This document shows, one piece after another, positions 5,837-9,667 of a stretch of 26,770 nt of DNA. The position numbers and the translations under genes were made by a program. Source of the stretch: a virus; IMG/VR virus record IMGVR_UViG_3300031857_001153, positions 1-26,770 of that record; one strand, written 5' to 3'. The stretch's first letter is position 1, and each line of letters starts with the position of its first letter. The notes beneath the pieces are model-generated. The model was not told the origin of the DNA. It ran no database searches and saw nothing but the letters and a program-made list of their open reading frames with translations.

Positions 5837-5931
5837 GCGTTGTCCTCCTCGGTGCAGATGCCCGTGAGGGCTCCGCGGCAGTGATGCGGTCGGCGGTCGC
5901 AGACCGGGCAGCGGGCGTCGGGGTCGCTCAT
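5833..5931 (-). CDS. 32-residue zinc-knuckle miniprotein
   Basis: A short gene from ATG 5931 to TGA 5833, overlapping WhiB upstream and the exonuclease downstream by ATGA at both ends. The product starts MSDPDARCPVCDRRPHHCRG and has CxxC, HH and two further Cys, enough for one zinc site. Support is the double overlap, the coding-like composition and the good ribosome site it supplies for the next gene. Function unknown; it could also act mainly as a coupling leader. Confidence 0.6.
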   Translation of the reverse strand: MSDPDARCPVCDRRPHHCRGALTGICTEEDNA

Positions 5932-6365
5932 GCGGCGACCTGGCCCTTGAGCGGGTCGTGGCGGCGGCAGCAGCCGCGGGCCTTGGCGATGGACGGGCAG
6001 CCCTCCACCTGGCAGGTGGACCGCTTGCGCCTGCGGGTGCGGCTCATCAGGCGGCGGCACTCGCGGCACGCGCCGCAGGAGTCCCTGCCGACCTCGGCGA
6101 TGAGGTGCCCGCGGTGGCACTGCTCCGCGCCGCGGCGCATCCGCTGACGCTCCGGGAGCGTGGTGCCGCCCCAGATGCCGACCAGCGACGGGTCGCTGAT
6201 GGCGTAGCGCAGGCACTGCGCGAGCACCGGGCACGCGGCGCAGATGGCGCGCGCGGCCTGCGTATCGCGCGGCGACTGGTTCGCGGTCGGGAAGAAGATG
6301 TCCGGGTCGGTCTCGGTGCAAGCGGCGTCGTCGGTCCACGCCGGGGGCTTGAGCGCGAGGGTCAC
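5928..6365 (-). CDS. WhiB-family regulator with C-terminal zinc-finger extension
   Basis: A 145-residue protein. GTG 6365 was preferred because it forms a GTGA overlap with the preceding stop; a GTG at 6377 is the alternative. Residues 1-78 are a complete Wbl domain: C16, then C42-x2-C45-x5-C51 as 4Fe-4S ligands, GIWGG at 63-67, and the basic PERQRMRR after it. Wbl proteins bind sigma factor region 4 and tune transcription; phage WhiB of TM4 is known to interfere with host WhiB2. Residues 83-136 add an unusual Cys/His-rich tail (CHRGH, CGACREC, CQVEGC, CCRRH), nearly doubling the usual length. The tail resembles the fingers of the phage's HNH-type nucleases. Confidence 0.9.
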   Translation of the reverse strand: MTLALKPPAWTDDAACTETDPDIFFPTANQSPRDTQAARAICAACPVLAQCLRYAISDPSLVGIWGGTTLPERQRMRRGAEQCHRGHLIAEVGRDSCGACRECRRLMSRTRRRKRSTCQVEGCPSIAKARGCCRRHDPLKGQVAA

Positions 6366-6556
6366 GACCGCCCCCACTGCTCGCGGATCGTGTCGTGGAC
6401 CGAGCCCACCCGCTCCCGCAGGTTGACGCTGATCTGCGCGCGGCGTGCGGCGTCGCGGCGCACCTCGTCGCGCAGGCGGGCGGTGACGTAGCCGGCGACG
6501 TAGCCGATGCCGATCAGCAGGGCGACGGTCCAGAACAGCGTGGCGGGGGCCGACAT
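6362..6556 (-). CDS. 64-residue single-pass membrane protein
   Basis: Starts at ATG 6556, directly on the stop of the preceding gene (TGATG), and its TGA overlaps the WhiB GTG. One hydrophobic segment (residues about 6-25, LFWTVALLIGIGYVAGYVTA) is followed by a charged, amphipathic helix rich in Arg, a type I-like small membrane protein with a cytoplasmic tail. No recognised family. Early-operon membrane proteins in temperate phages are often superinfection-exclusion factors, but nothing here proves that. Confidence 0.65.
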   Translation of the reverse strand: MSAPATLFWTVALLIGIGYVAGYVTARLRDEVRRDAARRAQISVNLRERVGSVHDTIREQWGRS

Positions 6557-7025: not shown

Positions 7026-7256
7026 TTATGCGGCGTCCTCCCCGATGAGGGCGGACACGGAAACTCCGAGCCATCGCGCGATGGCCCGGAGTTCGGTGAT
7101 GGTGAAGTCGGTGCGCCCGCTCATCCGTCCGCTGACGGTCGGCTGGGTCAGTCCCAGGAGGTCCGCCATCTCGCGCTGGGTGCGCCCGTGGCGAGCCATC
7201 TCTGCCCGGATCGCGGCCCGCAGGTGGCCGACGGGCTGGCGCCGTGTCGTGCTCAT
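7026..7256 (-). CDS. Cro-like XRE-family HTH regulator
   Basis: A 76-residue protein. ATG 7256 is preferred; an in-frame ATG at 7283 lacks a ribosome site. Nearly the whole protein is a helix-turn-helix XRE domain: HLRAAIRAEMARHGRTQREM, then LLGLTQPTVSGRMSGRT and ELRAIARWLGVSVSALI. It is transcribed divergently from the repressor at 7374 and heads the early operon, as Cro does in BPs-type mycobacteriophages. It closely resembles the repressor's HTH (shared GRTQ, LLGL.Q, S.RM.G.T and WL.V.V), so the two probably compete for related operators. Confidence 0.85.
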   Translation of the reverse strand: MSTTRRQPVGHLRAAIRAEMARHGRTQREMADLLGLTQPTVSGRMSGRTDFTITELRAIARWLGVSVSALIGEDAA

Positions 7257-7373
7257 GGGTGAATGAATATCACCTCTCGGCATAACCGCGCAAGATATCT
7301 AGACCAGCGTGTCGTGACCGCCTATCGTGCGAGAGCACGGGCATTCCCCGCCCGTTATCACAGGAGGCACCGG
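7257..7373. promoter_or_regulatory. Divergent promoter/operator region of the lysis-lysogeny switch
   Basis: This 117-bp gap between divergent HTH genes must hold both promoters. Visible elements: a plus-strand candidate promoter TAGACC (7300-7305), 17 bp, TATCGT (7323-7328); a dyad CGTGC-gaga-GCACG (7326-7339); a dyad CGGGC-N7-GCCCG (7338-7354); the palindrome AGATATCT near 7293-7300; and TATCAC-type sequences near both ends. AGGAGG just before 7374 is the repressor's ribosome site. Promoter hexamers are only 4/6 matches, so exact positions are tentative. Confidence 0.6.
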
Positions 7374-7694
7374 ATGAACCGGACGACACGCCAGGAGACC
7401 ACCGCGAAGATCATCGGCGGCAACGTCCGCGCCGAGCTCGCCCGCAAGGGCCGCACGCAGACCGCAGCCGCGCACCTGCTCGGGCTCCCGCAGTCGGCCA
7501 TCAGCCGCCGCATGAATGGCGGCACGGCGTGGGAGATCGACGAACTGCTCGCCCTCGCCACCTGGCTGGACGTGCCCGTGACGACGTTTCTTGACGGGCT
7601 CCCCCGGATGGACTCGAACCATCAACCTGCCGGTTACTTGGCTCAAGTCCTCGCCCCCGCTGCCGACCCCTTTCTGGAGTTGACAGCAGCATGA
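7374..7694 (+). CDS. Immunity repressor (XRE HTH) with attP inside its 3' end
   Basis: A 106-residue protein starting at ATG 7374 after AGGAGGCACCGG. The HTH spans about residues 17-73 (NVRAELARKGRTQTAAAHLL, GLPQSAISRRMNGG, ATWLDVPVTTFL). Codons 76-88 are read through a sequence that is the antisense of a tRNA 3' half (7599-7636). The protein then ends YLAQVLAPAADPFLELTAA, a hydrophobic, Ala-ending tail that looks like an ssrA-type proteolysis signal. Its TGA overlaps the integrase ATG (ATGA). The arrangement equals rep in integration-dependent switches: the viral form is long and probably unstable, the prophage form truncated. In a tRNA-Asn target, codon 88 would become TAA, giving 87 residues. 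Confidence 0.88.
   Translation: MNRTTRQETTAKIIGGNVRAELARKGRTQTAAAHLLGLPQSAISRRMNGGTAWEIDELLALATWLDVPVTTFLDGLPRMDSNHQPAGYLAQVLAPAADPFLELTAA
7599..7636. other. Probable attP common core (3' half of a tRNA, best match tRNA-Asn)
   Basis: The minus-strand reading gives TAACCGGC (end of anticodon loop and 3' anticodon stem), a five-base variable loop, the T-arm GATGG-TTCGAGT-CCATC with perfect pairing, then CGGGGGA plus discriminator G. The 5' half of a tRNA is absent (no TCCCCCG, no D-arm), so it is not a functional gene but a tRNA-derived attachment core, as used by tyrosine integrases. Homology ends after 7636, where tRNA-Asn would have A and this sequence has C. Isotype is inferred from TTAACCGGC. 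Confidence 0.85.
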
Positions 7695-8506
7695 CCACGG
7701 GGGTAGGGGTGCCGGCGTTCCCTGACGCATGGCAGGAGCACGAGCGGGCGTACACGCGCTGGATGCAGGCGGGTGGATGTTCGGATGGCACAGTGCGGCT
7801 GCGCCGCCACTACCTCGCTCGGTTCTCATCGTCGGCCGCTGACCCCATCACGGCGACGACCGACGACCTCGCGGGCGTGCTGTCCTGCCCGGCGTGGAGC
7901 GCGGAGACACGGCGCTCGGCGCGGGCGGCGGCCCGGTCGTTCTTCGGCTGGATGGCCCGCGACGGACGCAGGCCCGACGACCCGTCGCTGAACCTGCCGC
8001 GCGTGCGGATGGCACCGCCCCGGCCGCGCCCGGCCTCGACGGAGGCGCTGGACGATGCGCTGGCGCACGCCGATCACAGGGTGCGGCTCATGCTCCTGCT
8101 CGCGGCCTACGCGGGCCTGCGCTGCTCGGAGATCGCCCGCCTGCACTCCGACGACGTGTACCAGGGCGAGATCCGGGTCAAGGGCAAGGGCGGGCGCGTG
8201 CGCTACGTCCCGCTCCACCCGCGCCTGGCCGAGTGCTTGCGGGTGACCTCGGGCGGATGGCTGTTCCCGAACGGGCAGGGCTCGCACGTCAGCGCCGGCC
8301 ACGTCACGCGGCTGCTGTCCATCGCGCTCGGACCGGGGACCACGGCCCACCAACTTCGGCACCTGTTTGCCTGCCGGGCCTACGCCTCGCAGCGGGACAT
8401 CCTGGCCGTGCGCGAGCTGCTGGGTCACGCCTCGGTCGCCACGACCCAGCGGTACACGAGGACCCCGGACGACGCGCTGCGGCGTGCGGTGGAGGCCATC
8501 GCCTAG
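7691..8506 (+). CDS. int: Tyrosine recombinase integrase
   Basis: A 271-residue protein from ATG 7691, overlapping the repressor stop. Residues about 12-95 form a SAM-like core-binding domain. The catalytic domain has all expected residues: R144 (AGLRCSEIARL), K166 (KGKGGRVRYVPL), H220 and R223 (HQLRHLFACRA), H246 (LLGHAS) and Y255 (TTQRYTR). It is short, with little room for a separate arm-binding domain. It would recombine the adjacent tRNA-derived attP with the host tRNA. Transcription and translation depend on the repressor upstream; after integration the core separates int from that promoter, which would lower Int in the lysogen. No excisionase was identified. Confidence 0.95.
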   Translation: MTTGVGVPAFPDAWQEHERAYTRWMQAGGCSDGTVRLRRHYLARFSSSAADPITATTDDLAGVLSCPAWSAETRRSARAAARSFFGWMARDGRRPDDPSLNLPRVRMAPPRPRPASTEALDDALAHADHRVRLMLLLAAYAGLRCSEIARLHSDDVYQGEIRVKGKGGRVRYVPLHPRLAECLRVTSGGWLFPNGQGSHVSAGHVTRLLSIALGPGTTAHQLRHLFACRAYASQRDILAVRELLGHASVATTQRYTRTPDDALRRAVEAIA

Positions 8507-8571: not shown

Positions 8572-9249
8572 TCAGGCCGTGTCCTCCAAGTAGTCGGCAG
8601 CAGCACGCAGGATCGCGGGGTTGTCGAGGGCAAAGCCGAGCGCACGATTGCAGCCATTGCAGAGCAGGCCGCGGACCTTGCCCGTCGAGTGGTTGTGGTC
8701 AACGTGCAGGCTCTTGGGCCGCTCCCCCTCGGTGGGGTCCTGGCGGCAGATGGCGCACGCGCCGCCCTGCGCATCGAACATTGCCAGGTACTCGGCCAGG
8801 TCGATGCCGTAGTCCCGGCGCATCTGCCATTCCCTGCCCTTGCCAAAGCCCCGCTTCTCGCGGTATTGCCTGTCATACGCTCGCTGGTATGCCCGGTAGC
8901 ACGGCTTGCACTGGCGCTTCAGGTATCCGTAAAAGTTTGCTTCGTCGGTCTCTCCGCACTCGCGGCACTCCTTGCCGTCCCTCTTGTTGTGTACGGGCGG
9001 CTTGTCGAGCGATCCGTGGCGCTGCATCCGGTAGTCGTGGAGCCTGCAGTATTCGGCGGCCATGTTGCGGGCCGGGCGGTCGCAGCCCTCGGCGGCACAT
9101 TGGCTCTTGGGGGCCACCTCTAGAAACGGCTGCGCCGGCCCAAGGGCCCCGGTTCGCCTCAGCCGCTCGGTGTGCATGGAGCAGTAGTGGGCGGACCTCT
9201 TTTTGCGCCGCCGCTCACAGCCGTCGACGGAGCATGTAGCCTCGGTCAT
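8572..9249 (-). CDS. Recombination endonuclease VII-like protein with tandem N-terminal zinc fingers
   Basis: A 225-residue protein. ATG 9249 has GAGGG upstream; the frame remains open further upstream without support. Residues 6-34 and 51-79 are two copies of a finger of form C-x4-C-x11-C-x2-H with a basic RxxRxG end. A third Cys set follows (C95, C98, C114, C117). The C-terminal domain (about 160-212) is the endonuclease VII type of beta-beta-alpha-metal nuclease: ACAICRQ, SLHVDHNHSTGKVRGLLC, NGCNRALG and a final DNP. Such enzymes resolve branched DNA before packaging, or nick DNA. It is the last late gene, convergent with int, behind its own terminator hairpin. Confidence 0.9.
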   Translation of the reverse strand: MTEATCSVDGCERRRKKRSAHYCSMHTERLRRTGALGPAQPFLEVAPKSQCAAEGCDRPARNMAAEYCRLHDYRMQRHGSLDKPPVHNKRDGKECRECGETDEANFYGYLKRQCKPCYRAYQRAYDRQYREKRGFGKGREWQMRRDYGIDLAEYLAMFDAQGGACAICRQDPTEGERPKSLHVDHNHSTGKVRGLLCNGCNRALGFALDNPAILRAAADYLEDTA

Positions 9250-9279
9250 GCCGAGCCCTCCTACACAGGGTTTCGGTAT

Positions 9280-9309
9280 GGCCCTCAGGTGTTGACGCAC
9301 CTGGGGGCC
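9280..9309. terminator. Strong hairpin upstream of the endonuclease VII gene
   Basis: A 12-bp stem with one G-T wobble (9280-9291 with 9298-9309) and a 6-nt loop. It sits in the 79-bp gap between the end of the DUF6378-like gene and the endonuclease start. No other gene is seen in the gap. It likely terminates or attenuates the operon before the endonuclease. Confidence 0.65.
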
Positions 9310-9328
9310 GCTTTCGTTGATTGTACGC

Positions 9329-9667
9329 CTAGAGCCCGACGATTTCCGCGTACACGCTTGCGTACCCAGCAATGTCGACCACGGAGTCCCGGTGGTCTGG
9401 CGTGTTGAGCAGGCGCGACACCTTGACCTGGATCATGCACAGGGCGGCCTGCTGCGGCGTCACCTCGACGCCGAGGATGGGACTCCATAGCGCGGCGATG
9501 CGTTCGTGGTTCTCGCGCGCAGCTCCGTGGGTCTGCTGGCGATCGGTCGCGGTAATGCGGGCAGCCTCGGTCAGTACGGACTCGGTGGTGAGCGCCCCGG
9601 CCGGCGCGGGGTAGGCGCGTTGCCGCTCGGTCGCGGCGCGGTCCTGCCAGGCGTTGTAGTCAGCCAT
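9329..9667 (-). CDS. DUF6378-like phage protein
   Basis: A 112-residue protein from ATG 9667, overlapping the preceding small gene by 8 nt. The pattern DRQQTHGAARENHERIAALW, LGVEVTPQQAALCMIQVKVS, then HRDSVVDIAGYASV is that of a widespread all-alpha phage family (annotated DUF6378 in my recollection) usually found among nucleotide and DNA metabolism genes. Conserved His/Glu/Asp residues suggest a MazG/dUTPase-like helical hydrolase, but the activity is unproven. Length matches the core family. Confidence 0.75.
   Translation of the reverse strand: MADYNAWQDRAATERQRAYPAPAGALTTESVLTEAARITATDRQQTHGAARENHERIAALWSPILGVEVTPQQAALCMIQVKVSRLLNTPDHRDSVVDIAGYASVYAEIVGL

What the first reader, a model, noticed from the sequence alone, without database searches (positions are those of the whole stretch)
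7374..8506. Integration-dependent immunity switch: attP lies inside the repressor gene
Seen: an HTH repressor whose 3' codons run through a tRNA-derived 38-bp core, ATGA-coupled to a tyrosine integrase and divergent from a Cro-like gene. Known: mycobacteriophages BPs, Brujita and Charlie use this plan, where the viral repressor is long and unstable and integration truncates it to the active form. Inferred: this phage uses the same logic with a different tRNA target and sequence-distinct proteins.
Basis: partly seen in the sequence, partly recalled or inferred. Interest (0 to 1): 0.93.

Follow-up and report, generated by a model that had tools for sequence, protein, structure and literature searches.

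The report
Phage repressor truncated by its own integration
This uncultured actinobacterial phage carries its chromosome-insertion site inside its repressor gene, so that inserting into a host tRNA-Asn gene should cut a degradation tag off the repressor and switch immunity on; this is a well-formed new example of a switch already known from mycobacterial and Gordonia phages.

Summary
A 106-aa HTH repressor (7374-7694, +) overlaps a tyrosine integrase (7691-8506, +) by ATGA and diverges from a Cro-like gene (7026-7283, -). A 40-bp stretch inside the repressor (7597-7636) is the antisense of the 3' half of an actinobacterial tRNA-Asn(GTT): 38/40 to Kribbia tRNA-Asn, and 30 bp of it exact in tRNA-Asn of four other Actinomycetes genomes. 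Joining the phage core to a host tRNA-Asn puts a TAA in frame exactly where core identity ends, so the repressor drops from 106 to 87 aa and loses YLAQVLAPAADPFLELTAA, which ends in an ssrA-like AA. The hybrid tRNA-Asn stays intact. I tested the logic in natural lysogens of phages with 40-47% identical integrases: in 9 of 11 prophages with a repeat at both ends, attL holds an HTH repressor stopped by host tRNA sequence within two codons of the core, while the reconstructed phage form is 8-75 aa longer. The closest documented systems (Gordonia McGonagall/GMA5; mycobacteriophages BPs and Charlie) share the plan. Exact host, real attL/attR and repressor stability remain untested.

The parts
7026..7283 (-). 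Cro-like HTH gene (85 aa; an internal ATG at 7259 would give 77 aa), divergent from rep
   Evidence: HTH_3 E 3e-10; phrog_4583 E 1e-18; 52% identical to Rep over 56 aa
7284..7373 (.). cro-rep intergenic region, presumed divergent promoters and operators; Shine-Dalgarno AGGAGG at 7362-7367
   Evidence: Sequence. No sigma-70 consensus promoter found; only one 9-bp inverted repeat, arms 67 nt apart. Operator role inferred.
7374..7694 (+). rep, immunity repressor, virion form 106 aa; HTH plus antisense-tRNA-coded segment plus tail ending TAA
   Evidence: ORF; HTH_3/BetR; phrog_4583 E 1e-17; architecture shared with known repressors
7597..7636 (-). attP common core: 3' half of tRNA-Asn(GTT), lying antisense within rep codons 75-88
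   Evidence: 38/40 to Kribbia tRNA-Asn; 30-mer exact in tRNA-Asn of four genomes
7635..7691 (+). rep codons 88-106 (YLAQVLAPAADPFLELTAA): the tail predicted to be lost on integration, with ssrA-like C-terminus
   Evidence: Predicted attL gives TAA at codon 88 with five tRNA-Asn genes; known repressors mostly end AA
7691..8506 (+). tyrosine integrase, 271 aa, ATGA-coupled to rep, C-terminus -EAIA
   Evidence: Phage_integrase E 2e-21; phrog_1 E 6e-41; 45-46% to McGonagall/GMA5 Int, with R144, H220, R223, H246 and Y255 invariant

Best explanation
This is an integration-dependent immunity switch. In the free phage, rep codes for a 106-aa repressor whose last 19 residues end in an ssrA-like -LTAA and are expected to send it to ClpXP-type degradation, so the lytic pathway is open. 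The co-transcribed integrase recombines the 40-bp core inside rep with the 3' half of a host tRNA-Asn(GTT) gene. At attL the repressor frame then runs into the antisense of the anticodon loop, where the host supplies TAA, so the prophage makes a stable 87-aa repressor that keeps the HTH domain and gives immunity. The tRNA-Asn is rebuilt intact, and rep's tail and int are left at the far end (attR), away from the rep promoter. Shown from sequence: the anatomy, the core, the in-frame stop and the hybrid tRNA. Shown in relatives: truncation at attL in natural lysogens. Inferred: degradation of the long form, and that the short form alone gives immunity.
For: Core inside rep and equal to a tRNA-Asn 3' half. 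With five real tRNA-Asn genes, attL always gives 87 aa plus stop for crossovers inside the core; the other two frames of the antisense Kribbia tRNA read on. The host-phage hybrid tRNA is called tRNA-Asn(gtt) by ARAGORN. Known integration-dependent repressors share HTH + antisense-tRNA '(R)DSNxxP' + AA-ending tail (PMC5559632, PMC4557955). In natural prophages with related Int, 9 of 11 attL sites give Rep stopped within 0-2 codons of the core (e.g. Xylanimicrobium 144 vs 180 aa with tail ..DRAA; Microbacteriaceae VKM Ac-2854 103 vs 118 aa..EEAA; Curtobacterium 109 vs 117 aa..DQAA). Three further viral contigs carry the same tRNA-Asn core in an HTH ORF in the same frame followed by Int.
Against: No lysogen of this phage is available and the exact 40-bp core is absent from the genome collection, so attL/attR are predicted, not seen. 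Tag-dependent degradation is inferred from the last residues only. The Labedella prophage has a core inside a repressor ORF but a longer form in the prophage and no AA tag, so core-in-repressor alone does not guarantee the switch.
Confidence: 0.88

Rival explanations
1. The attP core lies in the end of rep only as a compact arrangement. Both the 106- and 87-aa forms are equally stable and active, and integration changes nothing about immunity.
For: The HTH domain lies wholly upstream of the core in both forms. In BPs both forms bind DNA similarly (PMC4557955).
Against: The tail ends in an ssrA-like AA as in the documented repressors. Several relatives keep an AA-ending tail and the frame that gives an immediate stop despite otherwise unrelated tails, which suggests selection.
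Confidence: 0.08
2. The gene at 7374-7694 is the Cro-like or Xis-like partner and the divergent gene at 7026-7283 is the true immunity repressor, so truncation would tune a lytic regulator.
For: Rep's best phage hits by sequence include genes on the Cro/excise side of known phages, e.g. Charlie gp36 and Guacamole gp41. The two genes in the window are paralogous, 52% over 56 aa.
Against: In all documented systems the repressor is the gene upstream of and co-oriented with int that holds attP. The 7374 gene has the tail and position of the repressor. Paralogy explains the cross-hits.
Confidence: 0.04

Closest known systems
Gordonia cluster CW phages McGonagall, Jeanie, GMA5, GRU3 (PMC5559632)
   Same: Int 45-46% identical; rep upstream of int; core antisense in rep; repressor tail ending AA
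   Different: tRNA-Lys target; 17-kb genomes; repressors only 23-26% identical
Mycobacteriophage BPs (PMC4557955; Broussard et al. 2013)
   Same: attP within repressor gene; long virion form with ssrA-like tag, short stable prophage form; divergent Cro-like gene
   Different: BPs: 136 to 103 aa (33 lost). Here: 106 to 87 aa predicted (19 lost); different tRNA (BPs target recalled as tRNA-Arg, not tested here)
Mycobacteriophage Charlie
   Same: cro / rep / int order; repressor with antisense-tRNA segment and AA end
   Different: Int 32% and Rep 24% identical to the window proteins
IMG/VR contigs L002 (3300037483_000513), L220 (3300042860_002533), L221 (3300044730_001309)
   Same: Same tRNA-Asn core in an HTH-type ORF, same antisense frame (LPRMDSNHQP), Int following
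   Different: Distant repressors (L002 34%); different tails; only L220 ends in AA

Membership tests
Integration-dependent immunity systems (BPs type) | attP common core inside the repressor coding sequence | tested here: met
   Core 7597-7636 within rep 7374-7694; equals tRNA-Asn 3' half
Integration-dependent immunity systems (BPs type) | rep upstream of and co-oriented with a tyrosine integrase, divergent from a cro-like gene | tested here: met
Integration-dependent immunity systems (BPs type) | Integration truncates rep through a stop supplied by host sequence at attL | tested here: inconclusive
   Predicted with five real tRNA-Asn genes and observed in 9 of 11 relatives' prophages; no lysogen of this phage available
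Integration-dependent immunity systems (BPs type) | ssrA-like C-terminal tag (ending AA) on the virion form only | tested here: met
   Rep ends -LELTAA; lost in the predicted attL form. Sequence only
Integration-dependent immunity systems (BPs type) | Integrase also bears an ssrA-like tag | tested here: inconclusive
   Int ends -EAIA; relatives end AAVA, SIVA, TSAA and similar
Integration-dependent immunity systems (BPs type) | Long form degraded; only the short form gives stable immunity | not testable with these tools
   Needs protein stability and immunity assays

The most novel reading that the evidence does not exclude
A minimal version of the switch: an 87-aa prophage repressor that is little more than an HTH, closely paralogous to its opposing Cro (52% over 56 aa), with its stop codon supplied by the antisense of the tRNA-Asn anticodon loop. 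The repressor frame through the tRNA in this phage family would be fixed by which frame of the target tRNA gives an immediate stop.
Probability: 0.3. Interest if true: 0.45.

Novelty: new member of a known kind. Interest (0 to 1): 0.3.

Why it matters
It extends a documented but unusual lysogeny switch to another uncultured actinobacterial phage and to a tRNA-Asn target. The survey shows the same truncation in natural prophages of Microbacteriaceae, Xylanimicrobium, Brevibacterium, Nocardioides, Actinomyces, Agromyces, Curtobacterium and Canibacter, so the switch can be recognised and its prophage form predicted from attP alone.

Tried and rejected
Exact core search in 84,980 genomes and in viral contigs: no match. 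Host search by pattern: the nearest is a Kribbia-type tRNA-Asn, 32 of 188 genomes of that family at 2 mismatches and none better, so no host was assigned. A single-sequence Int scan of viral contigs found nothing; an alignment of 12 integrases worked. No promoter consensus or clear operator repeats between rep and cro. A tRNA-Thr target was considered from the phage bases AGTAA next to the core and dropped, because the acceptor strand CGGGGGA-G fits tRNA-Asn and all matching genes called are tRNA-Asn. A tRNA gene encoded by the phage: none. Structure prediction was not run, as it would add little to an HTH with a short tail. Five genomes gave no usable repeat between prophage ends and were not counted.

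Full report
Observation. The window is a 26,770-base viral record. Rep (7374-7694, +, 106 aa) has a clear ribosome-binding site and an HTH domain. Its stop overlaps the start of a tyrosine integrase (7691-8506). A Cro-like HTH gene (7026-7283) points the other way. Rep and Cro are paralogous (52% over 56 aa).

The core. Positions 7597-7636 read, on the minus strand, TAACCGGCAGGTTGATGGTTCGAGTCCATCCGGGGGAGCC. This matches 38/40 of the tRNA-Asn(GTT) of Kribbia dieselivorans, which ARAGORN calls at L175:1466-1540; the two differences are one compensated T-stem pair. The 30-mer GGTTGATGGTTCGAGTCCATCCGGGGGAGC is exact in four of 395 sampled Actinomycetes genomes, each time inside a tRNA-Asn(GTT). 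The full 40-mer is in no held genome. In the family of Kribbia 32 of 188 genomes match with two mismatches and none better. The host is therefore most likely an actinobacterium, not further identified.

What integration would do. Joining the phage side of rep to five real tRNA-Asn genes, with crossover inside the core, always gives 87 residues and a TAA, because the host anticodon loop read antisense is TTAAC in rep's frame. The other two frames of the antisense Kribbia tRNA do not stop there. The prophage repressor would lose YLAQVLAPAADPFLELTAA. A hybrid of the Kribbia 5' half and the phage 3' half is still recognised as tRNA-Asn(gtt).

Test in relatives. The closest phage integrases belong to Gordonia phages McGonagall, GMA5 and kin, for which integration-dependent immunity with a tRNA-Lys attB is published (PMC5559632). 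Their repressors, and that of Charlie, have the same three-part build: HTH, a segment translated from antisense tRNA ((R)DSNxxP and the like), and a tail that mostly ends AA. A scan of bacterial genomes with the integrase alignment gave prophages. For 16 of them the sequence around and downstream of int was fetched and a repeat shared by the two ends was sought; 11 gave a repeat that was followed up. At attL, 9 of 11 have an HTH ORF that stops within two codons of the core in host tRNA sequence, while the reconstructed attP form runs on for 8 to 75 residues, in several cases ending in AA (Xylanimicrobium DRAA, Microbacteriaceae VKM Ac-2854 EEAA, Curtobacterium DQAA, Micrococcales 72-143 RLAA). 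Not all tails end in AA: Agromyces ends VRS and Canibacter RRC. Labedella is an exception: its prophage form is longer and there is no tag; it carries two repressor copies and may be a tandem prophage. The Microbacterium aoyamense repeat is not a convincing att site.

Same target elsewhere. Three other IMG/VR contigs carry the same 31-bp tRNA-Asn core inside an HTH-type ORF, in the same antisense frame, followed by an integrase. tRNA-Asn is not among the published Gordonia attB sites, but it is not unique to this phage.

Verdict. The system works like the BPs switch (PMC4557955) and meets the sequence-level criteria that could be tested. The functional criteria (degradation of the long form, immunity by the short form) and the actual junctions of this phage are not tested. 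It is a new member of a known kind.

Noticed in passing
window 7026-7283 and 7374-7694: Rep and Cro share 52% identity over 56 aa, more than in the ten reference phages compared (best 39%, JustASigh), which hints at duplication and shared operators.
   Followed up: partly
L032 (Labedella phragmitis) and its downstream loci L191-L193: Two HTH repressor ORFs with the same core about 16.7 kb apart, probably tandem prophages; [quoted passage not shown]
   Followed up: partly
window 5928-6377 (-): WhiB-like regulator upstream of the immunity region.
   Followed up: no
window 8572-9372 (-): Endonuclease VII protein with an N-terminal cysteine-rich stretch, convergent with int.
   Followed up: no
L120, about 143 and 220 bases upstream of the int match: Two copies of the tRNA-Lys-type core 77 bases apart upstream of the integrase.
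   Followed up: no
L222:4023-4053: Same tRNA-Asn core in a viral contig without an evident HTH repressor or int next to it; possibly a prophage end of another element.
   Followed up: no
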